Shown here: in pieces, positions 891 to 56,602 of the stretch
Layout: each line of letters begins with the position of its first letter
Position numbering within the stretch: the first letter of the stretch is position 1
Assembly (NCBI RefSeq): GCF_001638985.1
Contig: NW_017265192.1
Location: 159,681-223,680, forward strand
Reading direction: 5' to 3'
DNA from: Phycomyces blakesleeanus NRRL 1555(-)
Lineage: Eukaryota > Mucoromycota > Mucoromycetes > Mucorales > Phycomycetaceae
Length of the DNA: 64,000 nucleotides
The notes under the pieces: generated by a model
The model's input: only the letters and a program-made list of their open reading frames with translations
What the model was told of the DNA's origin: nothing
Database searches by the model: none
Position numbers and translations under genes: made by a program

Positions 891-2101
891 TTATTTGATT
901 TTTGACCAGGATAGCAGTATATCCGTTTTTTTCTTTTCAAGCACCTTTGCTCTTCTTTCTTTGAGCTTGTGGAAAAAAGCCTTGGCATTCTTTTTTTTTG
1001 GGAGAGACTCATAATGTGTATCAAGTTCATCAACAAACTTGTCAGCCTATAAAATCAAGAATATATATATTACTGAACAATTCTTCTATTTTATCTCTTT
1101 ATATAGTACCTCATCGTTTCTTTATGTTGGCCAAAATTGCCAAAAACAACTTGATGAACCAGAATCATTGTCATTGTCAGAGTCCAGATCTGACGTATAA
1201 TCAGCCTGAAGAAGTATGTTGCTATCTTCTCCAAATGTCTTCACAAAGTACTCTTTTTTTGAGGCAAAAGCGAAGAGCCGCCTTTTGCTAGTCTATATAT
1301 TTATTTCGTTTTTTTTTATTAATATGGTTACATTTATAAGAGATGATGTATTATCTCTATGCACCTTTGATGGTACTGTGAAGATTTGTTGTCAATGGTC
1401 TTCTGTTCTTTGGACCTATTCTCCTTTGACTTCTTGTTGGCAATATGGGCCACAACTTTTTTATGCAGAGTGGAAGGTAGTAGATTCTTTGCTTCGCTTT
1501 AGTTGCTAAGGTAGGTTTTTACAGACTGAATTATTTGTCTGTTTCCATCAGAGCGACATGTTTCTGATCCATTGTACTGACTGTACAAGCTCTCATTAAA
1601 CATGTAGTCCTACATCAATTGCTATGATTTATATATTAGATATTTCTTTAAAAAAATACATTAAATACTTACATCTACAGTAGAAATACGTCCAGGAGCA
1701 AGGACATTTTCTACGACCTCACTTGCAATAGTAGCAATTGTGTTTGAAGCTACATTTTGAGCACTACTCAAAAGGAAGGTGCTCACCTGGTCAATTTTCT
1801 GATACACATCTTCAATTGTATGAGTGCTCTCAGATGGATCATTCTCATTGTTTGTGCGTGCTCTTTTGGGTGATGGAGCCATTGGAGCACTGCTTGGAAC
1901 TCTGGTTCTTTGCTCCATAAGATCCAAAAGTTCCCCTACATTACTTGGTGAACTAATATGATATTTAAAAAAAGAGTAATAAGTGTTAATATAATGATAA
2001 TAATGAAATCTATATAATTACATCTGCTCAGCAGATTCATAGCCATTGGTGCTGGTGGAGTTGTTGGATTTGTTTGAGCGGTTGGTCTTTGATCTTAGCA
2101 T
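891..2101 (-). pseudogene. accessory gene of element G, broken
   Basis: Convergent partner of the G transposase. The start codon is at 2101 (MLRSKTNRSNK). A second exon around 1930-1670 carries APSPKRARTNN and EDVYQKIDQ, matching APKRARLN and HDVYEKLDT in the element C partner. A third exon around 1625-1370 aligns colinearly with the C protein but contains two in-frame stops, TAG at 1610-1612 and TAA at 1499-1501. The last exon ends in LLSWSKIK, matching LPSWSKK in C. The architecture is a short helical region, a basic middle and a conserved tail. A DNA-binding partner of the transposase is an inference. The two stops make this copy non-functional. Confidence 0.65.
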
Positions 2102-3912
2102 ATTAAGCAATAAAGTCTATTATTTTAGAAATACAATTTATTCATTTTTTATATACAATTTTTATTTAAACTCAATGCTTTACATTTTCTTGGGGAACAC
2201 AGTGAACTTTGATGTTCACTATAGACTTGGTAAAAATAAACATACTTACTATCATTATAATAACATTATTTTTATAATAAGTGCATATGAGTTAATACCA
2301 ATAATTGTTTGATATAAAAATATACAATATTTATTTTATTTATCATTATTAGATATTAAAGATTATAAAGATGTGTGATTTTATATTTGATTTTTATAAG
2401 AAAACACTTGCCCTAATTTTTGTTTGTTTTTCTTTTTCATATATTTCTAAATTTGTATTTAATAGAATAACTGCGTTCCCTTTTTCTTTTCTTTCACTTT
2501 CTTCTCTTCCACATGCTTTTTTTTGGCTTCCTTAATAATTTGGTAAGTTTACTGCTCACACCCGCACTTTTATTATCCAACGTGTGTTCTATACTCTTCT
2601 TATACTGCTTACTCTATAGGTTTTTCAAGAAAGCAAGTACTATTAGCAAGTATTCAAAACACTATGGTAATATTCTTTGAATTTTCTACATATAACCCAT
2701 TGACTCATTATTATCAAAATATCTCAGAGAATATTTGAATAGATAACCATGCCTCACTGTACTTTACAAAAGATATATTAAGATATCTATGGTTCAGTCA
2801 AAGGTAATATTAACTACTTTGCAAAGTTGGAATATATTATTATTATTTTTATATATTTTAAATAAAATATAATTTTAGTTCAAGCAATACACTTAACAAT
2901 CTATCTTGTAAACATGTGTCTATAATATATAAGTAAAATACACTCTTATAATTTTATATATTAACAACTGTATATTTATTTTGTGTTTTTTAATGATTTA
3001 TTCAGTATCTAAAAATCAAAATGGTGTTATTATTTTCTGAAAATCCTACCCGTAGATATTCTAAAATGTCTTTATATGTAAGTATTCATATATATATCTA
3101 TGAAGCAATATATATTAATGATAATTTCTTTTTTATCTTAAATGTTCAAAATATAGCTCTCACAAAAGAAGTCTAAGAAAGTCTAAAAAAGTCGCAACAA
3201 AATTATTTTTGGTCAAAGGAGTATAAATCAGAGAAAAAGGCATTGGATATATGAAAGCAATAAGGTGGGAAAGTATATTATAAATCGCGTCATCAATATC
3301 TCTCATTTTATCCAATGAATGAAATTGTAACATGTATACAAATGCTACTATCCAAATATGTGTATGTAAAGAAGTATTAGTGGCAAACGTTAAATAGTTA
3401 AATTGTTTTTTCAACCATTCCAAAAATCAATAAAAACCATTTTTTCCATGATATTCCATTCCTGAATCATCATCTTTTAATGATGTCAGCAAGCTTTTTG
3501 AAAGTAATTGAGAGTCTTAATCTTCCAAAAATCCTATTTAAATCCTATTTAAATCCTATTTAAATCCTATTTAACAAAGCTTTTTACTATTAATAAATGT
3601 GAACCCAAGTTTATTTTGTTTTAAAAGGTGGTTATTTAAAAAAACAGATTCATATAAAGATATATTTGAGTAGGATTCGTAACTATGGATAAATATATAA
3701 CCAAAATACTAATGAATTATAGATTTCAATTCTGCATGAATGTAAATGTCAAATGTAATTCATTATCTAATAGTATGTAAAATATTATCATTGACAAATT
3801 CAGGAGTCCATTTTTACAATCTTGTATGGAATTCATATAGGCTTACTATATTATATTTAAGTCTGCTATTACAGATATTTTATATATTATTATAGGATGT
3901 TTTTTGCAGTGC
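2102..3912. other. accessory-gene upstream region of element G, no supported gene
   Basis: AT-rich, with no convincing gene. About 3160-3500 aligns without gaps over long stretches to 38400-38680 in element C, in the same orientation relative to the accessory gene. Four tandem 11-bp units lie at 3530-3573. The open frame in the conserved block shows no excess of silent changes relative to C, so I treat the block as a conserved non-coding or regulatory segment. Confidence 0.5.
3530..3573. repeat. 11-bp tandem repeat, four units
   Basis: Four perfect head-to-tail copies of AATCCTATTTA inside the upstream region of element G. The corresponding region of element C lacks this array, so it is probably a local expansion. 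Confidence 0.85.
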
Positions 3913-6390: not shown

Positions 6391-6739
6391 TAACATTGCA
6401 AAAACACCTTAAAATAATTGAATTCTACTTACCTGGAATTATCGATAACACACCTACTGACATTTCTTTCATTTATGGTAATTTCTAATGGTACAGCTGT
6501 TTCTATTGGTTTAGAGTTCCAATTTTAAGTTGAACCTGTTAAGGCTCAGATTTGGGTGTACGAATTTGATATAAATGAGCCAAAAGTGGATTAGTGTAAT
6601 GTTTTAAGTGTCATGATAAAATTTTAGATGGTACAAAAATCTGAAATGGGGGGAGAAGCGAAGAGAGCTGGAAAAGAAGAGATTTTATTGGACGAACCCC
6701 ATTGGGAAAAATACTTTTTTTTTTGATAAGTCATTTTTT

Positions 6740-9700
6740 TTAATAGATTTTTGCAATGTTCATCAACATCCACCAGAACATGCCGAATTTTGCAACGTTG
6801 AGGAACTTTTGGTTATTGGAAGACCCGACGGACAAGTGAATATCAACAGCCTGAACGATGTTGATGTCATCTTTGTTGACTTCAACCAGGCCTCCAAGGG
6901 GCAGAACCACAATGTTGTTGTAATTGTCCGTTACCACGGCTGGGGTATAGATGCAATTTACATTGCTGTTCGGAACAATTTGGTACTTTTGCATAAAGAA
7001 CGCCTTCCTCATTCTGTCTGCAGAGTCTCTTGCTTGAACGATCTTTACCTGACCAAGGAATAATTGACCATTTGATTGAAAAACACCTGCAAGTGTATCG
7101 CACAAAGTGGGAGTCGACAACCTAGAATTGTCACTGTTGACACGAGAACCAAAGAAATGGAGATTAAAGCCTGGGAAATTGACAGGGGCTAGCTTGACAA
7201 AATCACCAATTGAACTTCTCACAGATCTTGTTCCATTACCAGCTGGTTTCTCTACGACATACGATCCTCCATTACAAAGATGCCGACAGATGAATTGCTT
7301 GCCAAATCTTGTAGCGACGTCTCGAGAGGTGGAATGGCGGTTGGTCTTGAATAAATGTTCGCGGATGAACTTATTGAACTGTTCACCGTTTTCAGTTTCG
7401 TATTGCAGCACGGAACCGAAACGAACAATGTCATCAGTGATATGATGCAGAAGGTGGACCTTTGGCTTGAACGTGAAGTCTTGCTTAGAAAATCCTTTTT
7501 GGAGAATCTGGACATCCAGTTGAAAAAGCAGATCCGTTACATCAGTGACAGCGTGTTTTATCTGGGCAATATAGTAGTCGAAGCACCGGTCGACTCCACG
7601 CATGTACACCAAAGACGACAGGCGGCCTAATGCATGCAAGGCTTTAATGAACAAACTTGCCAATGGTTTGTCACTAAAGAGCTTGCTCATAATTCCAGGC
7701 AGGACTTGAATCAATTCCTTGAAATCGCGTCCAACGAACGAACCAGTGTGGCGAAGCTTGTTCCTGAATGTTCGGCTGTAACTCTTACAAGACTTGTAAG
7801 AGTTTAGAGCTTCCTGGAGTCTCCCCTTTTCACTTGTAGTCAGCATCTTCTGTTTCCAGAGAAAAGTCATCAAGTATTTCGTCAGGCCAAGAGGAATAAT
7901 GTGGAGAATTTCGACAGGCATGTCTTTGGTAGGGTCAAAGGCTTCGAGTCTAAGAAATTCCTCACTTCCATTCTTGATATAACTCAATTCGCACCCATTG
8001 AGATATAGCTCTGACTGGGAATCGGCATTGGCAAAGGCGCACAAGAAATCCCTTGTTCTTTCTTCTGACCCACGGTGGTCAACTGGAGAATACGGCGGAG
8101 CATCAGGGATGGAACCCTGTTCAATACGAGGCGAAGGTATGAGGCATTTTCGGCAAAACTTCTTGGCAGATGTTCCCTTATGCATGGCAAGCTGAGATTG
8201 ACGAGGGTTGTCACCCATAAAGAGCAACAGGGGCGCAACAACAAGAACTACTTCACCATGATCCTCAGAATACATCTCAATACCTTTCTCCAGCCTAACG
8301 AGGTCATCGACGATAGGGGGCAACATCTCAATGGCATTCAGTGTATGATTCGAGGTACAAATGAAAAGAGCATTTTCTCGTTTGTTTCTCGTCTCAAGTG
8401 GCAACGCAGCAAAGTACATTAAGTAACTGTCATACTTGTTGTACTGCTTTGTTGAATTACCGGAGGTATCGTCGGAATAGAGATTAAGTGGGCAGACAAC
8501 CACTTTCATCAAACCAGAGCCTGGAAGTCTTCTCTTGAATTCTTCAACACGGGATTTGTTGAGCCACAAGTCAGATTGAACACCAGTAAGAGCATAGGTG
8601 ACAATTTTGGCAGGGCAATAAGAAACAGAGAAACCACGTCCGAGGAAAAGATCGCTGTCTTTTTGAACAGTAGACATAATCCTATCAACTTCAATGGTAT
8701 ACTTCAGGGTAGAGACAGCAAAGTTCGTAGAGTTTCCAAACCGCAGGAAGTGAGTATCATCAGGATGGTTCAGCCAAGGATCGTGGCCACCATAAACCTG
8801 GAACGCATTGGCAAGTATGGATCCGTCCTTGGTGAAGAACTTCTCAAGGAGATACCGGTTCGGGGAGCCTTGGACTTCGACGACATCACCCACCCAGTAG
8901 TCCATTCCGTTTGAAGTGATCATCGGGTGCTGGAGCAATGGGTTCTCCTTCCACTTTTCGCCTTGGTTGAGATTCAACCGCTGGTTTTCCGTGAAGTCAG
9001 GAAGGGCCGAGATTTGAGATGATTTTCCGGGACATGTCATGGTAAACTTGATGTAATCGGACGGTTTGTTCATCCAAAGTACATGTCGTTCATTGTCTTG
9101 GTTCACAACATCGAAACTGGCAGTAGGAAAAACAGGGATCTGGTTCTTTTTCTGCTTGTGATAGTTAATCACAGCATTTGGTGTCGGAAAATCCAGTGCT
9201 ACTCCAGATTCTTCACGGACGTCCAAGACCATCTTCATGGCAAACATGATCTTCTTGATAGATCTTTCTGAGGCAAGATCTTCATCGCCGTAGAAGAGAG
9301 CATGTAAGATAAACTCTACTTTCGATTTAAACGGACGGGTGGGTCCAGTAAAAATGTCAGCAAAGTCATCGGGCCGGTACGATGTCTGTCTGCTGCTGTC
9401 TTCGTTCGAGTAGGCATTCATGGCATGAGAAAGAGATTGGAAGGTTCTCATTTCTGCTGCCATTCTAGCGATATGATCCTGGCTATCATATTCTACTCTG
9501 GTGTCCATGTCTTCGTCGTCAGTGGTCTCATCATAGTCATCTGATGAATCACTGTTCAGCAAAAAAAAACAGGTTATTATCTATTTCAATATTGCATTAC
9601 TAATTTTTACTTACGATAGAATGTGATCATCACTATATTCGTCTTCGTCAGAGATTTCATGGCCATACGTGTCCTGAGGGTTTTCAATAATAAATTCCAT

Positions 9701-10053
9701 TGGGGCAGGTTCATTATTACTGTTCAGGTTGGTAGTGGCAGTGGTAGTGGCAGTGGTAGTGGCAGTGGTAGTGGCAGTGGCAGTGGCAGTGGTAGTGGCA
9801 GTGGCAGTGGCAGTGGCAGTGCTTGCAGAAGAAGAAGGGCCATCAAACATAGCAGGTCTAATGTTAAGGTATGCTCAATTTCAGCTTTACATTACATAGT
9901 ATTTTTCATCCTACTTTTAGGATTAACTTACCTTCTTTTTAGAAGTTTCTCATACTCCCCCATTTCGTTTGGATGTTTTTTTGTATAATGTCTTCTGAGG
10001 CCTTGCAAGGACCCTAACACTCTTTCGGTTTCGCAGACGGTGCATACAAATGT
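6740..10053 (-). CDS. DDE-type transposase, 'DDTSGN' fungal family, with zinc finger and Thr/Ala linker
   Basis: Three exons are supported. A C2H2 finger exon (about 10053-9948) has FVCTVCETERV then LRRHYTKKH. A linker exon (about 9863-9613) consists of Thr/Ala repeats and acidic residues. The main exon runs to a stop at 6740 and is uninterrupted for over 900 codons, far longer than neighbouring open frames. Near residue 363 of the main exon, LNLYSDDTSGNSTKQYNKYD resembles the first catalytic Asp region of tnp2-type enzymes. LPPIVDDLVRLEKGIEMY, VVAPLLLFMGDNPR and a C-x-x-C pair (FCRKCL) follow. I recognise the DDxSGNxxK(x)xNK pattern as a fungus-wide transposase-like family but cannot name its superfamily with certainty. 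The true start is unresolved because an in-frame TGA (10054-10056) lies just upstream of the finger. This is the most intact transposase core in the window. Confidence 0.75.
9731..9822. repeat. GTGGCA/GTGGTA microsatellite inside a coding exon
   Basis: About 92 bases of nearly perfect hexamer repeats (GGTAGT/GGCAGT type). On - this is translated in the transposase linker as alternating Thr and Ala. On + the same bases would read Gly-Ser, but that frame has no other support. The repeat keeps the transposase frame open on both sides. Confidence 0.9.
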
Positions 10054-10056
10054 TCA

Positions 10057-11000
10057 GTTGTCTGTAGCCGTCGGTGTGAGGAATGTGTTCCTCTTTGTTG
10101 TGAAGTGATTTTCCATGTTTAAAAATCTTTGGAACGAAAGATGTAGAAAAGCGTAAACTAATTCGAGGTACCATATCTTTAATCATGCAAAAAATGACTG
10201 CTAAAAAAATCATGTGAAATAATGTGAGCTATTTTTTTTTGTTTACTTGTTTCCTTCTTTTTCTTTTTTTTTCTCATGACTGAAAGGTAAGTTTCAAGCG
10301 TAATCTAACAAGATGATAGCGTCCATCATACCGAACACCCTCAGTAAGTAATATATTTATTATGCCCTACTTCATATTGATACTAATATATATTTTTTAT
10401 TAGATTCTATGGAGATTCCAACATGAGATTGTATTAGGAAGTTACTTCAAACTATGCCAAGCTGTCTGTCGTGGTATTATAAGGTATCTACTCCTAACAT
10501 AACTAAACAAGCAGTCTTTTCCTTTACTTTTGTTAATAACTTTACCCTCATCTCTTTAGGTAAGTCTCATATATCACTGTCTGTCTAGTATAAAAAGGTA
10601 ATTTACCATATTATTTACTTCAAAGGTCATAACACTAATACTGTTTCTGTTTAATAGTCGTTCTTCTTTACTTTTACCATGTCTATCTCCCAATCTATTG
10701 CATAAGAGAGGCTGCTACACTAGACTAGCTACTAGTATATAGAACGCGTAATCCTAGTACTATTTTTTTATTGAAACCAAAATAAAAACATTTTTTTGAA
10801 ACATTTTTTTTTTAAATATTTTTTGAAACCCTATAATTGCAATTATTGGACCCCCCATTTTTCAGATTTTTTGTATCCATCCTTTTTTCCATTCACGGTA
10901 AATTCGAGCGGACACTTCATATTCCGCTTTAGGAAATTTTAGTCAGGCCAACTTTAAATCTAGCTTGGACATTGAGTTTAAAAAAATCTCAGTGGGTGTG
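10057..11000. other. upstream and right terminal region of the CACACC-ended element
   Basis: No gene is visible. It holds the promoter side of the 940-codon transposase and the right terminal inverted region, with the G-rich/C-rich segment near 10850 that mirrors 6630-6650. It is AT-rich with several T runs. Confidence 0.5.
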
Positions 11001-11189
11001 AATAGTAGCCAAAAAATTACAACCCAGGTCATTTCCTGTGTTTAGCAGCGAGAATATATTTAAAGACATATCATTGGCCTAATATATATCAGAGTCCCTG
11101 AGAGAATTTTTTCAAAATAATAAAGACAATTATAATAAGCAACGGCTGTTACACACTTCCTTTATTATTAAAAAAAATTAAGTGAAAAA

Positions 11190-11266
11190 ATGTTTTCCAT
11201 TGCCAATCCCGATGAAGTTCGTTGCAAATGCACAAGATGCAATCGCAATCCTCTTGGATACACCAT
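11190..11266 (+). pseudogene. element A transposase, first half of exon 1 (cut by CACTA copy 1)
   Basis: ATG at 11190 opens MFSIANPDEVRCKCTRCNRN, a CxCxxC zinc-binding module. The frame runs into the CACTA end at 11267. Deleting the CACTA element and one copy of the CAT duplication makes the frame continue at 18816 as MTDKRTAKCHAQNDN. An uninterrupted paralogue of the same exon exists on - at 45872-45760. The insertion therefore hits the zinc-finger exon precisely. The rest of the gene is at 18816-21837. Confidence 0.85.
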
Positions 11267-11590
11267 CACTACGGCGGGATGAATGGCAGTTGGGCCGAAA
11301 GTAGGCACATAACTGCCATTTTTTTGGTCGAAACCCAATAAAATCTCCGCCGTTTGTTGTAAGATGGTAATGTCATTCGTAGCAATTTAAAAAAGTAACA
11401 TGAAAACACTTTTTTTGTTGCTGTACAATATTTTCAATACTGTAAAAAATGTTTGTAAGTTGTAATGACCACTTTGAGTATTGAAATATATGTTTTATTG
11501 AATATCAAAGATGTCAACAATTATTAAGATTAATAATTTTTGGAATGTGTGAACGAAATAGTAACATAACTGCCATTTTTTTATTTTTTA
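11267..11590. repeat. CACTA copy 1, left terminal and subterminal repeats
   Basis: Terminal CACTACGGCGG is followed by ATGGCAGTTGGGCC, ATAACTGCCATTTTTTTGG (about 11310) and TAACATAACTGCCATTTTTT (about 11562). The motif AACTGCCATTTTTT or its complement recurs at the right end. Such subterminal arrays are the binding sites of TnpA-type proteins in plant CACTA elements; here that role is inferred. Confidence 0.75.
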
Positions 11591-11895
11591 AACTACGTTC
11601 TTTTTTTTTTAGATATTCTTTTTATCTTGATGAATTGGCAATTTGATTTTATTTAAATCGCGTAATGGCATATAGAGCATATAGGGAATGAAGAGAAAAG
11701 CATAAGGTGTATAGAGAATAGAAAAAAAACCGGAGTATATAAAGAAGAAAAGAAAGACGGGGCATATAGAGATTAAAAAAAACATAAGAAATAGAGAAAA
11801 TTAAAAAAAGAATATAAGATACAAGGATGATATAAAAAATATAAAAGATATAAGGATATAGAGCATATAGAAAAATAAGATAAAAATAAAAAGGA

Positions 11896-14800
11896 TTACA
11901 GAATGGAAAGATTGCCTTTAGTAATGCGCATGTTGTTGTTAAAGATATAATAGGGCGCGATTACATAAAACTGGTTTCCATTCGGTGGGTATTGGACCAG
12001 ACCAACTTGATGACAAATGTTATTTACACTTATAACTGCATAAGTCGGTTGCGTTTGGTGGCCTAGTGTATGGGTGCTTTGTGACCATTGTTTGACGATA
12101 GGTACTGATGAGTCATGACCAGCCGCGTCATGTTCCTTCATGACCTCCACGAAAGCAAGAAAGTGTGGGAAGCCATAGAAATCTACATGCTGAAAGTAGA
12201 ACTGTACTGTACCAACGAGCCAGCTGTGAACAATTACATTACGGTTGCTAAAATAAATAAATAAATAGAATGTAAGCAACTTTTGATTGTATATCGAAAA
12301 ATATTATACTTACTTTCTATAGGGGCAAGTAAACATCACGTAATGGTTGCCACGGCTGGTCTCGTTTTTCTTTCTTCAGTACATGCATGAGGAATATACA
12401 GTTGAGTCCATCCACAGACGTGCAGCTACAACAACAACAGAGTCACCAAACTCGTGGCCAGTCAAGCCTGTTGTTCTCTGGTAGTATTTCAATAAAGCTT
12501 CCTTCACACTAGGGCCGCCTACACCTTCCACCGAATCATCATTCAAATTAACAAACTGATGAAACGGCTCCCACAACTGCGCACCACTAGGATCATTAGG
12601 AAGGTCCATGTAGCTCTCTCTTCCATATGGCTTTGGCCAAATGAGGTTGATTTCATCACAGATGCTGATTGCTGTGCTGGTATAATTGTGAATCGCAAAT
12701 CGCTCGACGAGAAAACTGGCATTTCGGCCACCCTTTGATTTGGACTTTATCAATTTCGAGAAGACGCCAATTACTCTCTCCATTGAGCGAGTGGAGTAGC
12801 ATCGCAGGGGGCCTTGCTGCTTGATGATATAGGGTATATGGACCAGGTAATGTTGCACTGGTCGGAAAACACTACGAGACAGGGTATTATTCTGGACTTG
12901 TTGGTATAAAAACGAGTGCCAGTGCTTGAAGTATCTATTATTAATATTTAAAAAATGGTAACAATCAGCTATTTGTAATGATAATATATGAGATGTATAA
13001 TAACTTACAACTCCATCTCATCAAGCAATTCTGATGTCAACGTCCATTGCAAGGCAAGCGCACAACCTTTCACGAGAGATAATAGAGCTGTTTTGACAGC
13101 CCTATTTGGTAAATAAGGCACAACCAAAGTGGGGACAAGGTATAAGAGAAAGTAAAGCCAGTCTACTGCGCGAGTACCATCGATCTTGGCAAATACGTTG
13201 TCGAAACTACCTTGAAATGAGGTGGGTATATATTTTCGTGAGCTGGTAATACAGTTTCCAATTGTTACAAGGTCTGCTCTTGGTATATGAAAAGGGTATT
13301 CGGTGGTATTGAGGGTATTGTCTGGATGGGTATAATAAAATTTGGTTTCCTTTGTGAGGGTGACAGTAATCAGGTCATACACAAACTTTCCAATCCCTCT
13401 TGCAATTAAATGAAGTTCATCTAATGCAAAAAATGATGATCCAGAGAAGGTTGAGAGTTGGGTATATATGCTCGGCTGGTATATGTTCTTCGACTATTAC
13501 AAGCAGTTATTTAGTATGAAAAAAAGATGGCTAATTGAACATTTGTATACTTACAGGGTTGCCTACTTTGAAGTCTTCCAAAGGTCTTAACCGGGCGGAA
13601 ATGTCATCAAAGTACATGCCATGCCGTCTGTTAGTAGGGCATTTGCCTTTGGTCTCACAAAAATGGCAACCAAATAAACTTGTATGGGAACCAATGTGGA
13701 CCATATCAGCTACAGCTGGAATATCGCCAGAAGCAAGCAGAAGATAGACCTTGGATCTGCAAAGCTCCACTCCATTGTGCTTGACAACCAAGCTATGTGC
13801 CTCAAGATCTCGCAATTCATTGATGATGGGTATAAGAAAGGAGTCCAAATGAGTTGGCTTCTTGGGGCCAGACAAGATTGCCAGTTGCAAAAGGTATTTG
13901 TTGGTATATCTAAGTATTTTATTAGTAATTTTTTTTAAAAAAAAAATGTAATAATAATAATAAATAGTAATAAATTAATTAATTACCTGATGGATGGGTC
14001 TAGGTTGAATATTATGCAATGGATGATGGTATATGAGTTTTTGCCTTTCTTTTGATTGACAAACCCATCAGTATAAAGCCCAATGGCAATATCATCGGGA
14101 TTGGAGAACAGGCCCTGCTGCACCAACTGCTTGTAATTGTCACCATCAAAAATGTCGGTTAGCTGACCAGCTACAGATTCCCGGTTTGCTCTGTAACAGA
14201 GGAGTTCTCTTGTGGCTGGATCTGCCAACATTTGAGAAAGCATATCCCCAACTGACATAAGTTTCATACTGGCGGCTGGTGTCTGACTTTGATCGGGATC
14301 AGTCTTGTATCGCGGTTTGCCGCAGTCAACACAAGATTCCTGGTCGTCATTAATGCCATACAATCGACAACCACTAGAGCAGACATCATACTCATGGCCC
14401 TTGACACTTGACTTTGACTTGAGCAAAGCATCAACAGTTTCGCCATGACTGATCTTAGCCCCAGGTTCTAAAAAAAATGATATCACTACATGTTAGTGAT
14501 CTGGAATTAAAGTACAAGGTAACAGAAAATATAATATTTTACCCATCATTATATCGTCATGGTCTCGGATGACAGTGTTTATAAATTGAACAATGTCTCT
14601 ATATGCTGCTCTAGCAATTCTATGCTGTAGCATCAATTGAGACAGATGAATACTCATCAACTCGGCCTTGGTAAAAGTATTTGTACTGATTCGGCTGCTG
14701 TCGTAAATGTGAGCTTCACCCTCACTGTCCTCAAAATTACATGCGCACTTATATGAAATAGTATTATCAAGCTCCATAGACTCCATAGTATATTCTGTAA

Positions 14801-15086
14801 TACATTATTTAGTAATTGGAAAATAAATAATACAATTACAGCTCTTTTCATTACCTGAATTGCTAACAGATTCATCTTCATTACTAGTATCATTTTCGTC
14901 ATGGTACATGTCAACATCATTCAGAATAGACTGGTCAATTTCAGTCATTGTTGCTGAATCTCCTCTGTGAATTCTCTTGTGGTTTTGCAGCTTCTGGTAG
15001 TTATCAAAAAACAAGACACATTGATCACATTGGTATTGCTGTGTAGATATTCTATCTCTCTGCTAGCTGGCGTTGGAAGAAGACAT
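11896..15086 (-). pseudogene. CACTA (tnp2-type) transposase, copy 1, with two in-frame stops
   Basis: Exon 1 (from 15086) encodes a C2H2 finger, YQCDQC then LQNHKRIHRG. An acidic stretch and exon 2 follow, ending at a donor near 14540. Exon 3 (about 14470-13988) has DVCSSGCRLY and CVDCGKPRY, a zinc-ribbon-like pair, and ends in GLYTDGFVNQKKGKNSY, matching the first Asp region of tnp2 enzymes. Exon 4 (about 13917-13560) has LLASGDIPAVADM and GCHFCETKG. Exon 5 (about 13495-13005) has FALDELHLIARGIGKFVYDL. Exon 6 (to about 12310) has YSTRSMERVIGVFSKLIK. The last exon ends at 11896. Codon 8 is TAG (15063-15065; CAG in copy 2), and TGA at 12376-12378 interrupts SSCMY/RKKNETSRGNHY in both copies. 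Confidence 0.8.
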
Positions 15087-21837: not shown

Positions 21838-21944
21838 TAAAATACTCTATCTTTTTTTTAAACTAATAATAATAATATAAAACATAGTTCATAGACATAA
21901 AAAGAGATGTGATAAAGAGTGCAACTAAAAAGACAGAAATTTTA

Positions 21945-27454: not shown

Positions 27455-27478
27455 AGCTGAATAGCGCAGAGGAAGCGC

Positions 27479-27518
<40 letters not shown>

Positions 27519-28496: not shown

Positions 28497-28523
28497 CACT
28501 GGAAAAATAACAATAAATACACA

Positions 28524-37982: not shown

Positions 37983-38008
37983 CACTGCAAAAGACAACTG
38001 ATTTAAGT
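37983..38008 (+). repeat. left terminal inverted repeat of element C
   Basis: 26 bp starting CACTGCAAAAGACAACTG, matching the right end at 24 of 26 positions. It abuts the ctt target duplication inside the F/B transposase gene. Confidence 0.95.
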
Positions 38009-41008: not shown

Positions 41009-41093
41009 TAAGACAATAAATCAAACATTTTCTAATAAATTGATAAAAGAGTGCAAAGTGGTATTTTATTAATATTATTTAAGCTTATATTTT

Positions 41094-44000
41094 TTAGGGT
41101 AAAGGGATTACTAAACGTTTAAATTCACTAGTTATAGTAAACCTATATTTAGCAATTGCAATTGGTGAATATAAACGATGTACTGGAATAATACATTCAT
41201 AATTAAGTACAGAAGAAGGTTCATTCCAGAGCTCAATGCCTTCATTTAACATTGGCTGGTAACTCCCCAAAGAATAACTAGAGTACCACTCAACAAACGC
41301 AAAAGTATGGGTGATGACAGTTTCGTTGATGGTTATCAAATGTTGAAATAAATACAGTATACGGCCAGGAAACGCTGCTTTATCTTCACTGTTATTCTCA
41401 AGATAATAGGCGCGGAAATAAGATCCAGAAGAGTATTCCTGTCCAAGAAGAGATATCCGTTTCATTTTCTCAATTCGGTTATTGACAAAAATCTGGTTAG
41501 ACTCACAGTTTGAATAATGGCCAAAAAGATTGTGACTGCCATACGCGTGTCTGTAAAACTCCAGTAAACATTCATAATGTCCCTTGCACATTGTAATCCT
41601 TTGGTCGAGTTTAATTGGAAACACTGAAGGGGGCAACGGCTCACAACCCAAAGCAGAATGGTGAGGGTTTAACGAATATTCAACAAAGTCAGACAGAGAA
41701 AAGGTACTGGCAGTAGAAGATGGATGCAATGCTGCTAATTGATCTTGACTATTTGAAATGCAATGCAGAAAGTCAATTGCGAACTGGGGAAGATGGTTGA
41801 CAAAAGATTGTATGAAGCTGCCAATGTATGTTCTCTCCAAAAATCTCTTCATCATTGTTGATTCGAAGCCGTCTTTTTGATTTGTTTTGATATTCTTCAA
41901 CAAACTATTGTATCTCTCGAAACTGAATAACCAGAAAGCATAAATTGGCCCAAAGTCATGAACACACTCGCCAAGATGAAGATATAGATGCATATTTGGT
42001 GTCACAGCCGATTTTCCATACAGTGTCTGAAATCTTGTACAAAACAATTGGAGTTTACTGTGGGCTTCGTCTATTTCTTTGTCATTGATCGAAGGTTTTG
42101 TGAGTAAGCAGCATGTGTCAACAAACAAAATCCAGTTTTCGAGATTCTTGGCTGGGAGCACATGCTTCAGAACAAATGGAGAGTATATGACGCACCACGA
42201 CTTCCACTCGTCAGCTTTCATGAACGAAAACCCATTGGCAATCTTCTTTGTTATATGCGCATATCCACAAGGTACAAAAATACCATTGGCAAGCTCTTGC
42301 ATAGTTAACTGATTCTTTTCATTGATGTAGTTACACTCGCGCCATATCTGAATCATTCGCTTTGCAGTTCCAAGATAGAGGTTATGCATTGGGTCTATAA
42401 CTGTAAAGTGGACTGGGTCAAAGTAAGATAACCAATGAAGCTCTGACCACCGAGTGCCGTTTTCTTTTTCTAGGCGTGTTCACTCAGTATTGTTCAATGC
42501 ATTTGCCCAGCTGACAGCGTGTTTCAGATTCATTGTCTTCGTGTGTCTCACCCAATTGCTATACTTGGATCCAGAGTAGTCAAGCTTGCTGGTCTTCTTT
42601 ATAGTCGTGAATTGTCGTTGACATTTGTGACAGGCGCATGTGCTCATGTGGCCAGTAAATCCAGAGGTTTTGCAAGTGGCAGGGATATCACAGGCAACAC
42701 ACATCAATGCAGCACGAACAACAATCTTTCTATTTTGCGAGTCTGTCATTTCTACACCAATGTACATCTCCAACAATTCGTCAACGAGCGGCTTCAAGTA
42801 ATGATTCATGCTGTCAGTGCTTGCTTCCTTTGGCCCAGGCATCATACCAACAAGAATGACATTTTCAGACTTAAGGTGTTCACTCCGTGGGAGATTGTTG
42901 ATAGAGAGATATATTGCACCACTGGAATGTGTTCGTCCATCAAATGGCTGAAACCAATCGATATTCAGAGTCAACATTAAAGATCGGCTATCATCAACAA
43001 ACCGTCTGCCATTGATGTCTTTAATATCACTCCAAACTGCACCATCGAAAATGTCAAGTTTGGTGTTTTCAATTATTTGACGATTTCTCCACAAATTGAT
43101 CTTGGACACGAAATCTGGCTTGGAGAATTTTTGTTGCAAGGCGTACTTCAGAGAGTTGAATGGATATACCATTGCTGGAAGAGAATGATTTCCGGTTGAC
43201 ACTTTAAAGAAATTGTTGTTGCAAATGGCGGATTGAGAGAATTTCTTAAATGTACAGACTCTTTGACTTGTTTCTGGAGAATAAATCGAATGACATTGTG
43301 AGCATGCAATGTATACTGTCATTCCATCTGTTGCCATGTTAAATCCTATCTTATGCTTCAAGCTATTGGTCGTCAGTGGAAGGGCGCCAGACATATCACA
43401 GAGAGACAGTAGAGTATTACAATATTCAATGAGAATCGATACACTGCTTTCCACCAAAAAGATCAAGTGAAATATGACAATGAATACTGCAACAAAGCAG
43501 ATATACAAGGGCATGTTATCAAAAGACAAAGGACGAACTATGAAGACAAAGGTTAAGTTAGTTTAAATTAATATATTGATTAATTGTCTATACTGTATTA
43601 ATTCATACCTGATTCTACTATTGAGGTCCCACTGGTCTTATCAAAGTTTTCTTCTTGTTCAAAATCAAAACCAGTATCGCCTTCTTCAATCTCATCACCA
43701 TCAACCACAAATGCTCCTGTAATTATATCTTCGGTAGTAAAGATGGACTCTTCTTGGGACAAAGGTAAGTCAACTGGAAAGAAATAATTGTTGTAAAGAT
43801 GTAGAAATAAAAATATAATTACAATTATAATCATATAAAAAATAAAAAATAAAAAAAAGATATATCAGTTTCAATTATTATTTTGTTCATTTATTTTATT
43901 TTATTTTCTTACCTTCTTGATCAAATTCAATGTTTTGTTCTTCATTTTCATCTTCATATTCGCCTTCGCCTTTGTTTTTGTAATCATAATCATTGTCATT

Positions 44001-44268
44001 GTCACTGTCAATACTATCTACTTCCATGTTGTCAAAATGTTCTTCAGGAACATCTATTTTATGAATTAATTTATATTAATTTTACATGTACAGCTCGAGT
44101 TATTCTTGTTATTTACCTATTGCATCGTCTTTGGCAACAGGCACTATATGTTTCTCATAGTGTCGTTGTGCATTTTGTCTTTTCTGTTTCTTTCCACGGC
44201 TATCCAACTTTGTACAGTCTGGAAATTTACAGATAACATAACTGTCTTTCTTTTGATTATTGGACATG
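41094..44268 (-). pseudogene. Plavaka/tnp2-type transposase of element C, one in-frame TGA
   Basis: Exon 1 (44268 to about 44118) has VICKFPDCTKL then NAQRHYEKH, a Cx4C..Hx4H finger different from the CxCxxC module of elements A, D and E. Two acidic exons follow (about 44055-43915 and 43772-43607). The long exon from about 43553 has a hydrophobic start, KIGFNMATDGMTVYIACSQC, LNIDWFQPFDGRTHSSGAIY with the Asp codon at 42957-42959, CDIPATCKTSGFTGHMSTC, VIDPMHNLYLGTAKRM, and NMHLYLHLGECVHDFGPIY. The C-terminal domain ends VIPLP at 41094. The only lesion found is TGA at 42480-42482, in the NNTE/TRLEKENG region where relatives have a coding triplet. Reading through it would give a full-length enzyme. 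Confidence 0.88.
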
Positions 44269-45089
44269 TCGATTGTTTTAAATTATAAAAAAAATTATAT
44301 AGATTTGAAGAGATCTTGATCAAGGTCTTTATATACCAAAAAAAAATTATAAATAGATAAAATACTGCTCCATGCCATGACTATAGTATGCCAAGTAATT
44401 CTTTGATACATCTACCACACATATCATCATAATTATACTCATATATCGTTAAGTCATTAACCAAGTCAAATACTGCGTACATTACTAAAAGTGTACGCAA
44501 TTTTTTTTAAAAGTCTTTTTTTAGAATTATAATATTTGATATGACAATGATTTGACCATGACAAAAAATAATCCAAAAATGGAACATTCGCCTCTCACAA
44601 CATGTGAAATAAAAAAATCTGATATTTTAGTTCCATATATCAAAGGGAAAAATCACGCAAAAATATTGTCACAGTAAAAATGAAATCACAACCTTTTGTC
44701 TCGTTCCCTTGAAATATATTGATTAAATATTTGTTCTTATATTCACATTTATAATATATAAAATATATTTAAATGATTTATTTTGAAATAGAAAAAGTGA
44801 AACCTTAAGAATATATATAATTTTTATTAAATATTATATTAACTTTTGTATAAGTGTTTTTTCAGTGTAATTTAGAATTATATCAAAGAAGTGTATAATA
44901 TAAAAAAAAACCCACTTTTGTAATTTTATGGCCAAAAAAAATGACGGTAGTGTGATTTTACAGCTTAAAAAGAGCAATCTGAAATCACAACAGAAAAAAA
45001 TAGAAATTATTTGAAAAAATTAAAAATCGAAAATTGTAGTAAAATTTTTGCAGATTTTCAGGAACTAAAATCAGTGGTCTTTTGCAGTG
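44269..45089. other. transposase-side end of element C
   Basis: 820 bp of AT-rich DNA without a gene, containing the transposase promoter side and, at 45064-45089, the right terminal inverted repeat. An internal GGTAGTG near 44954 resembles a CACTA-type end but is not needed to explain the structure. Confidence 0.6.
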
Positions 45090-51539: not shown

Positions 51540-51703
51540 CACTGGAAAAATAGGGTAATTTCATCTATGGCGTAGGGTACTATTATTTGTGGAGTGGTAG
51601 CTTAAATTTCCATCACTTTTGTCTTTTTTATTTTCGATGGCGATGATAATGCTTAGTCTGTTTTATTGGATAAAAAAACGAGTTTACTCTTTTTTGTAAA
51701 AAA

Positions 51704-51920
51704 TGTCTGCAAGATTTCTTTTTGGGACTTGTAGCCATGTCGCAGAGTCAATAGTTGTAGGGAACTTAAACCAAATGATATCTTTTGAGTGAGATAATAA
51801 AACTTTTTATTGTTGTAATATTTATTTATAAGTATGATGAGGTTAATGGTCGTGATATTACTACAAATATTTTTGTTGTATATGCTCTACAGCCAATAAA
51901 ATGTACATGACAACATGTTT
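51704..51920. repeat. LTR-like insertion in the leader of element D
   Basis: TTTCTTTTTGGGACTTGTAG and CGCAGAGTCAATA match the LTR beside tRNA-Met. The D leader is about 580 bp, against about 245-260 bp in elements A, B and E, so roughly 300 bp is extra. The exact ends and a target duplication could not be fixed. Confidence 0.4.
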
Positions 51921-52121
51921 TAACAAAAGCGTGTATTATTGTATTTTAGAATGAGGCAATCAATTACTGTTTAGAGAACTGCTCATTTTAACAGCCGGAA
52001 TAAACTATGTCATTTTGGAAGCTGGTATAATTTGGAAAGATATATATTAAATTGTGTTCCTGAACAATTTTCTATTCTTGTCAATTCTAAAGACTTAAAA
52101 AATAAAACACACACACACAAT

Positions 52122-55100
52122 ATGTCAAACAACAACAACAATTCAGAATGCAAGTGCTCTAAATGCTCTTCCAATAGCATGGGATTTGTTTTGGTGTCTA
52201 CCCAAACACTCAGAAGACATGCACAACAGGATATCGTGAGACAATATCAGTCAGGATCTTCTTGTAAGTTCAAATTTAAGAAAATTATTATTAAGACAAT
52301 TTTAATTAAATATTTATTTTCATATAATATAGCCTCAGTTATAGAAGTAATGTCGAATGACAATGACATAGAGATTGACTTTGAATACAATGTTGATGCC
52401 GAAGATCAAGTTGAAGGTATGCATAGTATTTTTATTAAAGTTTTATAATAATTTATAATATGTAATAATTTGATTCTTTTTTACCTAACAAAACAGCCAA
52501 AGACTTACCTCTTTTTGGCATTGATTCCTTGTTTGATTCTGAAAGCGAAGATGAGGGTGTCATTGAAGTAACCATTTTGGATATTTCTGACGATGAATCT
52601 GACGATGTTAGAGATTAGTACAAAAAGCACATATAAATCAATAAAGTCAACAAGTATTGATTTTTTTTTCAAATAGAGCACTTTTCTTCATCCAATATGC
52701 CAGTCGATCCTACTCATGCTTTCATTGCTTCTTTTGCTGCCTTCTTCATATCCAAATATGTTGTCAATTCTGGTGGTGCTGTTCTGTTAAAGTGTCTTAA
52801 CGAAGTATTGGCACACTTTGGACAGTCTTTCCGTCTTCCCCTCAGTATAAACGGTGTCAACTTTATGACCGGTCTCAGCGATGTGACTCGAGGTGTCCAG
52901 CGGTTTGTTGCATGTGGCAATTGTAACAAAGTATACAAAGAGTCTGATGTTGTTCCAGAGTGATGTAATTTCGAGAGACTCTCTGGTAGAGAATGTGGAA
53001 ACGCTCTTTTCTTTGCAACATCAAGAGCCTTGACTATCCCCAAAAAGATCTACATGTATAACTCCATAATCAAAACATTGTCTATCCTTTTTTGCCGCCC
53101 TGGATTTGAAGACACCATCAACCATTGGAGAATCAGAGTGCAAGTTCCAGGCATGATGTTTGACATTTACAATGGTACGAAGTGGAACAGTCTGAAGGAT
53201 AGCAATGGTTTACCATTTGTGAATCATGAGCGCTCCATAATGCTTACCATGAACATCGATTGGTTTCAACCTTTTGATGGGGTCACTTACTCCTGTGGTG
53301 CGATATACCTTTGCATCAACAACTTGCCAAGATTGGAACAGTACAAGAAGGAGAATGTTGTTCTCGTTGGTCTCATGCCAGGGCCCAAGGAAGCAAAGAC
53401 AAGTGAGATCAATCACTACCTCTGTCCCCTTGTCACGGAACTCAACCAGTTGTATGGCAGTGTGGTGATGGCTACCGTACAGTGCCCATCTGGTGCTCTT
53501 GTCCGTGCTGCCCTTCTTCTTGTTGCCTGCAACATTCCTGCTGCCCGTAAGACTTGTGGGTTCACCTCTTATTCAAGCACATGTGCATGCAATAAGTGCA
53601 ACCAACAGTTCCCTCGCCTTTCAGACTCCAATGCTGTGGACTACTCTGGGTTCGTGTTTTCTGAGTGGATGCCTCGCACTGATGCCAAAAACTGCCGTGA
53701 TGCACAGAGAAAGAGATTGGAGAGGGAAAATGGTGTCCGATGGTCAGAATTGCATGACCTGGTTTACTTTAACCTCGTGGAGTGCACTGTCATCGATCCG
53801 ATGCACAACCTGTACCTTGGAAAGCAAAGAGGATAATGGAGAAATGGAGATCTTCAGGTCTCATCACAGATGCACACTTGGCTGAAATGCAGTTGGATGC
53901 TGACAAGCTTGTACTGCCAGAGGACTACACGCCATTAGGGACAAAGATCGGGCGTGGCTTCCCATTCATGAAGGCTGACGAGTGGAAGTCTTGGTGCTTG
54001 GTGTACTCTCCTGTTCTCCTGCGTGGTCGTCTACCTGAAGCTCATCTCGGTAACTGGACAGCGTTTGTCAATGCATGCCAGTACCTCTCAATGCCAAGCA
54101 TATCCATGGCTCACCTTGATGAAGCCCATCAATCTTTGGAGGCTTCCTGCAGAGAGTGCGAGAAGTTGTATAAAGCCCCATTCCTTTCGCCAAACATGCA
54201 TCTCCATCTTCATCTGCAAGAGACTGTACTGAACTTTGGCCCGGTTTATGGCTATTGGCTTTTTAGTTTCAAAAGATGCAATGGTATCTTGAAAAACTAT
54301 GCGACAAATAGAAAAGATGGGTTTGAGGGAACCTATATGAATAAGTATCTTGAAGAAGCATACCAGGGAGATCTTATTCGCTAAACTTTGCCAATAATTT
54401 GACCTGAGCATTCGGTGATCATCCTTGAGCTCACTGCATCCACTGCCAATTCCATAGCCACTTCCACTTCCACTGCCACCTCAATCCAATTCGATATCAA
54501 TGCTTTTCTTGATTCTCCTGAGATCAACTTTGATATTGTCAAGGGAAATGAGCCTTTGCCCCCTTCCGCACTTCCTTTAGCTCTAAAGGGGGAGATTTCC
54601 ATGGATGAATCCGAGTATGAGCATTTGTTGGAATACTATCGCGAGACATACAATGATCAAACTCTTGTTCATTATCGTCATGCTGGTCATTCCAATAATT
54701 TTGTTAACAATCGGATACAGAAGTTTGAATCAATCAATCTTCTTGGGCAAATCTACAAGAGCAAAATGAAGAATCAGCGTGGGTTGTTCATGCAAGCCTT
54801 ATTTGAGACAAGTGATGGTAGAAGTACCAAGCCATACACAGGCCAAATTCAGTATCTCTTTGTCAATACTGCTGTAAACTCGTTTGCTGGTCATGCGAGC
54901 CAGCATGTATTTGCATATGTACGATGGTACAAGGAAGTTTTACTTCAGCCCAGAGCAGGAGAAGGAGTTGAGGTGAATGAGGTGGGGTTCGAAGATGACA
55001 GCATGAACAGCATTCTCCCAGTGCATAGAATCTGCTATGTAGTCGCAGTAGGCAAGCACCTTGGTCTAGAAGGCAAAGTTCAGATGTGTGTAGTTCCTTT

Positions 55101-55122
55101 GCCACGAAAAATTAATATTTAG
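52122..55122 (+). pseudogene. Plavaka/tnp2-type transposase of element D, broken
   Basis: Exon 1 (52122 to about 52263) has CKCSKCSSNSMGFVLVSTQT then LRRHAQ. Acidic exons lie at about 52333-52415 and 52498-52600. The long exon starts near 52677. Motifs: MTGLSDVTRGVQRFVACGNC, MNIDWFQPFDGVTYSCGAIY (Asp 53258-53260), CNIPAARKTCGFTSYSSTC, VIDPMHNLYLG, NMHLHLHLQETVLNFGPVYG, and a C-terminal domain ending VVPLPRKI. Lesions: TGA 52961-52963; a one-base deletion near 53820 in the GTAKRIME motif; TAA near 54382 and TGA near 54400; and the segment corresponding to LWKNAKTLTE is missing near 53700. The core Asp is retained but the gene cannot make a full protein. Confidence 0.88.
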
Positions 55123-55329
55123 ATTCAAATACAAAAATAAAACACATATAAAAAAGAAAAATTAATTAATACAGACTAATATATATAGCTGCACGTTTAT
55201 TTTTTATTATTTCTATAAATTTTTGTTTGTACTTGGCATGCTATACATGCATCTGTATACATCATGCTAATCCGTAAACATAAACAAGTAGAAAAAAGAC
55301 TCTAAAATAGTTGGCAAGAAAAAAAAGAT

Positions 55330-56602
55330 TTATTTTGAAAAGCACCAATCTGGTAAAGTGACTGCCAAATTCTCGGGAATGCTCACTTCTTTCTCATAAG
55401 GGATGCGCTTTTTCAAGCTTTCTGAATTTTTCTTCAAACGGATAACAGTAAGTTTATCAATAGTACTAATAAACGTCTGGAGCTGGTTTAAAGAATAAAT
55501 AGTATTAATAAAGTATTATTATTTTCTTTAAAACATAAATAGATGTTTAACATTACCTCATCAGTTCTCCAGCTGGGACGATATGCCCGCACTTTGTTAT
55601 CTCCATCCGACTCGTCATCAGAAATCACGTCAATAGAAAGAATATTTCCGCAATCATATCGATTCATGCTCTCATGAATAGCCTCTGTGTATGTCTGGTA
55701 CATGATAATATGACGGTCAAGAAGCTACCAAAGAATATTGTATTAAAACATTAAATCAATAGTAAATTAACTTTATTTTAAAACTTATGGTCTTCTTTCT
55801 GTTGCGTCTTCTTCCAGCTTTATTTCTAGCCATAATCTTCTCTGCTGAGATCCGGAAGACTCGCACTTGATTTTGTTAGTGATTCTTTATTATATTCATA
55901 ATGACACTCTTTGACACATTTGTGCAACATCTTTGAGGTCTCAGGTACTTGAAGAGAGCCAGTGCAAGTGTCTTGTTGTACTTGTTGCCATACGTGCCAG
56001 TCATTGACCATGCTGATCTATTATTATTCTCAGCAACTTTGAGTGGGTCTGTGCTAACAAAGTTCAGTTTCTTGATGTAACTATTGATAAGTTGCTATAA
56101 AAACAGTATTAGATATATTAATCAGTAATGTTATTATTATCAATTTACTTACAGAAATCAAGGGATGATGTTTTGCTCCAAGGTCAAGATTATCATTCAT
56201 GGAAGAAGAAGAATCTGCTGGTACAGCAGAAGGCATCACGGAATTTTGGCTGGTCATTGCCTTTTTTATTTCAGCATTTTCAGTCATGAGCTGAAGGACC
56301 GAGTTCTTCAAAAATTCATTTGTCTTGTTGGACAAATCCAGGCCATTCTTCAAATGAGTTATTGCATCAGTCACTCCTTTTGCATTTTGTTGCAAGGATT
56401 GCATCAACACATTGTTGGCTGCCAACAAGGTAAGGACGTGATCCATTGGGGTCCCAGCGACTTGAACTTCAGGGGCTGTGTCAACTGCTACTTCTGGGGT
56501 TGGTATATCAATTGGAGCAACAACACCTGCAATTGTGCTATTAAGAACAGCATTCATGCGTAGGTTGGGTTGGCGGGGAGCAGTAGGAATACGCTTTGTC
56601 AT
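55330..56602 (-). pseudogene. accessory gene of element D (RPxWRTDE family), one stop
   Basis: Exon 1 (56602 to about 56156) is long: MTKRIPTAPRQPNLRMN, then a helical region (VTDAITHLKNGLDLSNKTNE; LQLMTENAEIKKAMTSQ) that could form a coiled coil. Exon 2 (about 56096-55790) has YIKKLNFVSTDPLKVAENN, TLALALFKYLRPQR, an in-frame TAA near 55886, and the basic RNKAGRRRNRKK. Exon 3 (about 55735-55556) has TEAIHESMNRYDCG, ISDDESDGD and RPSWRTDE. Exon 4 (about 55480-55330) ends VTLPDWCFSK. It is colinear with the A and E proteins. The single stop lies in a weakly conserved stretch, and an intron boundary error could also explain it. Confidence 0.68.

What the first reader, a model, noticed from the sequence alone, without database searches (positions are those of the whole stretch)
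891..56602. A two-gene Plavaka-type system: every element pairs its transposase with a convergent accessory gene
Five independent elements (G, A, E, C, D) and the F fragment each have an intron-rich gene tail-to-tail with the transposase, about 80-210 bp apart. The proteins are colinear: helix, basic block, acidic MSGDE-like stretch, RPxWRSDE (A, D, E, F) and a xPxWSK-type tail (A, F, C, G; LPDWCFSK in D). Those of A, C and E look intact although their transposases are broken, which suggests selection or action in trans. I know of no named domain for them. Role inferred: a TnpA-like end-binding partner.
Basis: partly seen in the sequence, partly recalled or inferred. Interest (0 to 1): 0.82.

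Follow-up and report, generated by a model that had tools for sequence, protein, structure and literature searches.

The report
Two-gene CACTA transposons of a mould
Several jumping DNA elements in this stretch of the mould Phycomyces carry, besides their cutting enzyme, a second gene of an unnamed protein family that faces the enzyme gene and probably helps it recognise the element's ends.

Summary
The core observation holds and reaches far beyond the window. The window is Phycomyces blakesleeanus. In its genome, 185 of 202 accessory-gene hits lie 3' of, and convergent with, a tnp2-type transposase tail within 4.5 kb (random places: 1.7%). Six of seven modelled accessory families have an exon of exactly 306 nt between phase-0 introns, and a last intron right after the RPxWRSDE block. 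Relatives occur in Phycomyces nitens and Mucor saturninus. No Pfam domain (apart from a low-complexity repeat) or solved structure matches. UniRef gives 29 of 75 relatives a name beginning 'Homeodoma'; these are probably transposon genes.

Corrections: these are CACTA/EnSpm elements (CACTG ends, 3-bp duplications), not Plavaka. Only A's accessory gene is intact. Nothing shows it to be better preserved than the transposase.

New: F-type elements share with A the transposase-side end region (85-93%) and the accessory gene with 1 kb beyond it (91-98%), but their transposase is a diverged one (58-80%; dS about 1.4 against 0.15). The transposase was exchanged while the rest stayed together, which fits an end-recognition partner working like plant TnpA. 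The main rival is anti-silencing: copies decay mainly at CpG. DNA binding was not tested, and F's accessory-side end was not seen.

The parts
21945..23149 (-). Accessory gene of element A, 5 exons (22921-23149, 22766-22869, 22392-22697, 22161-22325, 21945-22097), 318 aa, intact
   Evidence: Splice model; NCBI protein P0002 from the same contig differs by 13 residues
19336..21837 (+). Transposase of element A (tnp2; weak DUF4218), broken by an internal stop
   Evidence: ORFs; PF02992 E 8.4e-19, DUF4218 E 1.3e-4 under its cut-off
6394..24826 (.). Element A as it lies: pieces 6394-6448, 11001-11266, 18816-24826, flanked by TAA on both sides; two other elements are inserted in it
   Evidence: Comparison with full copy L065; ends and flanks
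30526..31675 (+). Accessory gene of element E, 4 exons (30526-30801, 30858-31163, 31259-31444, 31535-31675), ends 7 residues early
   Evidence: Splice model; 28 E-type copies compared
31829..34381 (-). Transposase of element E, in three frame pieces (broken)
28497..35270 (.). Element E, ends CACTGGAAAAATAACAATAA.. / CACTGGAGAAATGACCCTGA..; no matching 3-bp duplication in this copy
   Evidence: Borders equal to those of L064 and L068
39782..41008 (+). Accessory gene of element C, about 5 exons, with a reading-frame break in exon 4
   Evidence: profile built without C hits two of its exons at iE 1.7e-4 and 7.9e-4
41094..43562 (-). Transposase of element C, broken by a stop
   Evidence: PF02992 E 1.8e-23
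37983..45089 (.). Element C, 7107 bp, TIR CACTGCAAAAGACMACTGAT, target duplication CTT, inserted in element F
55330..56602 (-). Accessory gene of element D, 4 exons, broken (internal stop, lost splice donor)
   Evidence: open copies of the same gene exist (P0036)
52964..55122 (+). Transposase of element D, in frame pieces (broken)
51540..57868 (.). Element D up to the point where a second B-type element starts (57869); its accessory-side end lies beyond or is lost
   Evidence: left TIR CACTGGAAAAATAGGGTAAT as in L066 and L070
35271..37982 (.). Element F, right piece: diverged transposase (-) and parts of the last two accessory exons (+, 35272-35358 and 35405-35554); the left piece is 45090-46113
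891..2100 (-). Accessory gene of element G, degraded; transposase tail at about 1-816 (+); probable element end at 3911

Best explanation
These are CACTA/EnSpm DNA transposons of about 6.3-7.4 kb. They encode two proteins from convergent genes inside the same terminal repeats: a tnp2-type DDE transposase (open frames of 827-871 aa in several copies) and an accessory protein of about 300-380 aa from a 4-5-exon gene. The accessory protein has an N-terminal long helix, a conserved all-helical domain of about 100 residues coded by one 306-nt exon, a basic helix, an acidic MSxGESD stretch and an RPxWRSDE/(L)PxW tail. Shown: the pairing, the gene structure, the family's spread and the element ends. 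Inferred: the accessory protein is a nuclear DNA-binding partner that recognises the element's own end regions and helps assemble the transposase on them. That is the job TnpA does for TnpD in plant En/Spm, done here by a protein without detectable relation to it. The A/F mosaic, in which an end region and the accessory gene stay together while the transposase is exchanged, is the main functional clue.
For: Pairing: 185 of 202 hits convergent and downstream, 2 same-strand, 15 without a transposase hit in 4.5 kb; random 1.7%. Four transposases without an accessory hit by the first queries (L067, chosen for its open frame, and the first 3 of a random sample of 10) all had the gene when read or scanned with a profile. 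Conserved 306-nt exon between phase-0 introns in A, E, D, X, Y, Z. 17 invariant columns in an alignment of 7 members. Relatives in P. nitens (49% over 83%) and Mucor saturninus (43% over 99% and 37% over 82%). CACTG ends and 3-bp duplications. A/F mosaic: F-type loci L048 and L057 against window A have dS 1.36-1.39 in the transposase tail and 0.13-0.16 in the accessory gene. Against element A of L065, window F is 85-93% identical over the terminal 750 bp on the transposase side and 58-80% over the transposase; L048 and L057 are 91-98% identical through the accessory gene and about 1 kb beyond.
Against: DNA binding was not tested. No repeated 7-12-bp motif in the subterminal regions of A, D, E or X beyond chance, and in C only a 7-8-mer that is part of the TIR, whereas element B shows such repeats clearly. 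No Pfam match apart from a disordered PT repeat in Y, no PDB sequence match below E 0.02, and no confident fold match. Recent accessory copies evolve near neutrality: omega 1.05 in A (0.79-1.52) and 0.78 in E (0.56-0.93). The mosaic may be a single event. The accessory-side end of F-type elements was not seen: it is missing in the window and lies outside L048 and L057.
Confidence: 0.48

Rival explanations
1. The accessory protein is mainly an anti-silencing factor: it binds the element and removes or blocks cytosine methylation so that the transposase gene is expressed (as recalled for VANC of plant VANDAL elements, and as reported for TnpA on the Spm promoter).
For: Copies decay mainly by C-to-T at CpG: 0.126 (A, 21 copies) and 0.120 (E, 27 copies) changes per CpG site and copy, against 0.007-0.034 in other contexts, the footprint of CpG methylation. 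TNPA's role on methylated promoters is stated in a passage of PMC1636069. Absence of TnpA-like subterminal repeats.
Against: No enzymatic domain found. CpG decay suggests that elements are methylated, not that the accessory protein acts on it. It does not by itself explain why an end region and the accessory gene stayed together in A/F.
Confidence: 0.28
2. The accessory gene is a transcriptional regulator of the element or a captured host transcription factor of homeodomain/Myb type, not needed for the transposition reaction.
For: UniRef names beginning 'Homeodoma' for 29 of 75 relatives (names cut off in the output). Basic helix plus acidic stretch.
Against: Pfam gives no homeodomain or Myb match (7 members at E up to 1; 5 relatives at E up to 10). 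The predicted C-terminal part is one long helix, not a three-helix fold, at low confidence. Only 15 of 202 hits lack a transposase hit nearby.
Confidence: 0.13
3. The exons are chance open frames or part of an antisense transcript, not a protein-coding gene.
For: Within families, omega of the accessory copies is near 1.
Against: Same exon length, intron phase and 17 invariant residues in families that are only 21-29% identical to A; 43% identical Mucor protein with the same motifs; independent gene models.
Confidence: 0.03

Closest known systems
CACTA/EnSpm elements with two proteins (maize En/Spm TnpA and TnpD)
   Same: CACTA/G ends, 3-bp target duplications, Transposase_21 transposase, a second element-encoded protein without enzymatic domain
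   Different: In Spm both proteins come from alternative splicing of one transcription unit (passage of PMC1636069); here there are two convergent genes. No Pfam match links the accessory protein to TnpA, and no TnpA-type subterminal repeats were found
Fungal CACTA element CNIRT6 of Cryptococcus
   Same: CACTG ends and a CACTA transposase (passages of PMC12810828)
   Different: I searched that paper for 'second ORF', 'two ORFs' and 'accessory' and saw no accessory protein described (passages only)
Plavaka
   Same: Related transposases; three elements of this genome reach the Plavaka Pfam model weakly (29.7-32.7 bits, cut-off 26.3), and two of them lie next to the same accessory tail motif
   Different: Ends and duplications differ; the window ORFs scanned match Transposase_21, not PF18759
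PIF/Harbinger two-gene elements (Myb-like ORF1 plus transposase) and VANDAL VANC (recalled, no call)
   Same: Two-gene layout; small DNA-binding partner beside a transposase
   Different: Other transposase superfamilies; Myb fold not shown here
SmTRC1 of Schistosoma (CACTA-like)
   Same: Transposase_21 element with extra proteins for which a TNPA-like role was proposed (passages)
   Different: Extra proteins arise by splicing and had no similarity to proteins of other animal or fungal elements, according to that paper

Membership tests
CACTA/EnSpm superfamily | Ends 5'-CACTA/G.. | tested here: met
   CACTG at both ends in L064, L065, L066, L068-L071, window C and window E; CACTA in B. No ends found in L067 and only a doubtful pair in L072
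CACTA/EnSpm superfamily | 3-bp target site duplication | tested here: met
   8 of the 10 elements just listed: L065, L066, L068-L071, window C, window B; not in L064 and window E. For L071 and B the duplication was part of the search that set the ends; for A, C, D and E types the ends are also set by alignment borders or a long TIR
CACTA/EnSpm superfamily | Transposase_21 (tnp2) transposase domain | tested here: met
   A, E, C, D over the Pfam cut-off; F and G were not scanned
CACTA/EnSpm superfamily | Short repeated motifs in subterminal regions | tested here: not met
   None in A, D, E, X; a TIR-derived 7-8-mer in C; clear in B. As recalled, common in plant members rather than required, so not used to exclude
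Plavaka | Match to Pfam PF18759 | tested here: not met
   None of the 10 window ORFs scanned matches at E<=0.01; genome-wide 3 weak hits elsewhere
Plavaka | TGT..ACA ends with 2-bp duplication, or CATCA..TGATG with 2-3 bp | tested here: not met
   Definition from passages of PMC12730594; ends here CACTG with 3 bp
En/Spm TnpA protein family | Sequence homology to TnpA/TNP1 Pfam families | tested here: not met
   No such family among the hits of 7 members at E<=1 and 5 relatives at E<=10; no direct comparison with a TnpA sequence was made
En/Spm TnpA protein family | Binds the subterminal repeats of its element | not testable with these tools
   Needs protein and DNA
Myb/SANT or homeodomain-like | Profile match to Myb or homeodomain families | tested here: not met
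   No hit in Pfam; HMMER filters may drop very weak hits
Myb/SANT or homeodomain-like | Three-helix HTH fold in the RPxWRSDE region | tested here: inconclusive
   Model shows one long helix (266-287) at block means of 63-77, rest lower
BEN domain | Fold similarity of the 306-nt-exon domain | tested here: inconclusive

The most novel reading that the evidence does not exclude
Mucoromycote CACTA transposons are modular: a new class of DNA-binding protein, with no named domain, forms together with the element's end regions a fixed address module, while the catalytic transposase is an exchangeable cassette. Dozens of genes annotated as homeodomain factors in Phycomyces would then be these address proteins.
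Probability: 0.27. Interest if true: 0.76.

Novelty: new variant of a known kind. Interest (0 to 1): 0.55.

Why it matters
The plant element Spm needs two proteins for transposition (passage). For fungal CACTA elements I saw no accessory partner in the passages read or in the listings of the paper searches, which cover only open-licence PMC papers. A conserved, abundant partner makes division of labour in CACTA transposition testable in fungi. The A/F mosaic gives a direct prediction: the accessory protein of A should act on F ends with either transposase. Annotations that count these genes as homeodomain factors would need correcting.

Tried and rejected
Plavaka label: rejected on ends, duplications and Pfam. 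PF18759 does ring weakly on three elements of the same genome, two of which show the accessory tail motif.

TnpA-type subterminal repeats: 12-mers with one mismatch in the terminal 700 bp, and 7-10-mers in the terminal 250 and 500 bp against 100 first-order Markov shuffles; nothing beyond chance in A, D, E, X.

Selection: omega against window A gave 0.68 for the accessory gene and 0.43 for the transposase tail over 20 of the 23 copies (I left out L048, L054 and L057, numbers typed). Against the majority codon: 1.05 and 0.45 in 21 A copies, 0.78 and 0.92 in 29 E copies. The accessory gene is not the better preserved one. CpG decay biases these ratios, and the E transposase counts suggest that some rows are badly aligned.

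Relatives: the search with A alone gave 12 proteins, 11 of P. blakesleeanus and 1 of P. nitens; the 7-member profile also gave only Phycomyces (35); the 4-member profile reached Mucor (2 of 40). In some searches only about 8000 candidates were scored, so absence elsewhere means little.

Counts: the 202 accessory hits are one exon per gene that I copied. I left out hits to other exons of the same genes, fragments without the chosen exon (for example C36:82373, C44:135332, C20:10740, C12:1401203, C7:306382, and the window's own F), and rows that the tool did not list. Transposase side: 355 distinct C-terminal loci, 187 with a convergent accessory hit by these queries, 168 without.

Full report
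Where it is. The window is G000:C46:159681-223680 of a 53.5-Mb assembly. NCBI proteins that match it come from Phycomyces blakesleeanus NRRL 1555(-), on a contig of 223,680 bases, which is the length of C46. It is a nest of transposons. A (6394-24826) carries a 4.55-kb element and the CACTA element B (11267-18815, duplication CAT). F (35271-37982 plus 45090-46113) carries C (37983-45089, duplication CTT). E lies at 28497-35270 and D begins at 51540.

What the transposases are. ORFs of A, E, C and D match Transposase_21 (tnp2) well above the Pfam cut-off; A, E and C also match DUF4218 below its cut-off. Ten elements with both ends known begin and end with CACTG (CACTA in B), and 8 of the 10 have a 3-bp target duplication. 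By the criteria in passages of Kojima 2025 (PMC12730594), this is EnSpm/CACTA. PlavakaA ends TGT..ACA with 2 bp and PlavakaB ends CATCA..TGATG with 2-3 bp.

The accessory gene. Splice models for A, E, D, X, Y and Z share an exon of exactly 306 nt, phase-0 introns on both sides of it, and a last intron directly after the RPxWRSDE block. X, Y and Z are families found elsewhere in the genome. C has a corresponding exon of 264 nt. An alignment of seven members (six families, A represented by P. blakesleeanus and P. nitens) has 17 invariant columns, although the members of other families are only 21-29% identical to A. A profile built without C and G still finds exons of C (iE 1.7e-4, 7.9e-4) and one of G (6.7e-4). 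The NCBI models of A (P0002, short by 13 residues), D (P0036) and X (P0038, whose third exon ends earlier) use the same junctions otherwise.

State of the copies in the window. A's accessory gene is intact. E's ends 7 residues earlier than 24 of 28 E-type copies. C has a reading-frame break, D an internal stop and a lost donor site, G stops. Open copies of these families exist elsewhere in the genome (A, D and X types).

Genome-wide pairing. One-exon hits were collected for seven groups. Convergent downstream transposase tails within 4.5 kb: A 25 of 26, E 28 of 31, X 32 of 36, Y 16 of 19, C 33 of 37, C-like 8 of 9, D 43 of 44; total 185 of 202, 2 on the same strand, 15 with none. Random places give 1.7%. 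Conversely, 187 of 355 transposase tails have a hit by these queries. Of the 168 without, the first 3 of a random sample of 10 could be fetched and all 3 have the gene by profile. So does L067, which was chosen for its open transposase. The pairing is probably close to universal, with the queries limiting the count; the other 7 of the sample were not seen.

Spread. Relatives: P. nitens 49% over 83%; Mucor saturninus P0059, 43% over 99%, and P0061, 37% over 82%. The Mucor proteins keep the exon-2 domain, MSEGES, RPGWRSDEFN and, in P0059, LPQWAF. I could not see their genomic neighbourhood. Of 75 proteins found in the three searches, 29 carry a UniRef name that starts 'Homeodoma' (18, 11, none; names are cut in the output). 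No Pfam hit supports that name.

Structure. In the full model, residues 111-190 are confident (block means 83-92) and all helical; the N-terminal helix 48-93 and the basic helix 195-233 are less so; the RPxWRSDE tail is one helix at low confidence. The domain alone folds at pLDDT 83.6. No solved structure matches convincingly.

The A/F mosaic. Along element A (L065), window F is 85-93% identical over the terminal 750 bp on the transposase side, 58-80% over the transposase (about 750 to 3150; the ORF ends at 3335), and mostly 90% or more from about 3220 on, as far as F goes. L048 and L057, two further F-type loci on other contigs, show the same jump and stay 91-98% identical through the accessory gene and about 1 kb beyond its start. 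Synonymous divergence of L048 and L057 from window A is 0.13-0.16 in the accessory gene and 1.36-1.39 in the transposase tail. Windows that cover the introns are as similar as the exons, so protein constraint does not explain it: the transposase was exchanged between elements that share an end region and the accessory gene. By protein identity to A, F-type loci have 73-74% in the transposase tail but 86% and 92% (L057, L048) and 78% (C2) in the 306-nt exon. Elsewhere the accessory gene diverges faster than the transposase: 40-45% against 50-53% for X versus E, and 34-44% against 43-69% in 8 of 8 C-like loci compared with C. The four known F-type loci (window F, L048, L057, C2:1324711) may descend from one event. 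The accessory-side end of F-type elements was not seen.

Mechanism. Shown: two convergent genes in one element, conserved together, ends defined. Inferred: the accessory protein is nuclear and binds DNA (basic helix, partner position). Inferred from the mosaic: it belongs functionally with the ends. The closest working model is TnpA with TnpD in En/Spm; a passage of PMC1636069 states that TNPD interacts with TNPA and stabilises its DNA binding, and that TNPA acts on the methylated promoter. Against a close copy of that model, no subterminal repeats were found in A, D, E and X and only TIR-derived ones in C, while B has them.

Silencing. In 21 A and 27 E copies, C-to-T changes fall at CpG at 0.126 and 0.120 per site and copy, against 0.007-0.034 in other contexts. 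This is the expected footprint of CpG methylation; methylation itself was not measured. It fits an anti-silencing role as a rival, and it also disturbs dN/dS.

Papers. Seen as passages: PMC12730594 (also its abstract and outline), PMC1636069, PMC4007536, PMC12810828, PMC10386755. En/Spm details beyond, VANC and PIF/Harbinger ORF1 are recalled.

Noticed in passing
window 6449-11000: A 4.55-kb element inside A with imperfect inverted ends (CACACCYACTGA..), no 3-bp duplication found, and a 946-aa open frame (6740-9580, -) without a Pfam match at E<=0.01.
   Followed up: no
window 11267-18815 and 57869 onward: Element B: CACTACGGCGG ends, duplication CAT, strong subterminal repeats (AACTGCCATT, TGGTAACA); a second copy, 96-99% similar in the compared pieces, begins where D breaks off. 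Whether it has the accessory gene is open: only a weak profile hit (iE 0.66) at 16507-16719.
   Followed up: partly
A- and E-type copies, loci L004-L032 and L034-L056: Decay dominated by C-to-T at CpG (about 0.12 per site and copy), the expected footprint of CpG methylation.
   Followed up: partly
P0003, P0004, P0023, and L072 upstream of the accessory gene: A recurring peptide (SQYEYVLICDKSNIRVSGSP in P0003, P0023 and L072; another part of the same insert in P0004) appears inside accessory-gene models and beside an element, probably a small repeat inserted there.
   Followed up: no
window 50345-51013 (+): ORF with a MULE transposase domain match just under the Pfam cut-off (26.3 against 27.6 bits), next to D.
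   Followed up: no
proteins P0013-P0068: 29 P. blakesleeanus relatives bear UniRef names starting 'Homeodoma'; probably transposon genes annotated as transcription factors.
   Followed up: partly
window 27455-27527 and 49062-49132: tRNA-Met and tRNA-His genes called between the elements (bacterial code settings).
   Followed up: no
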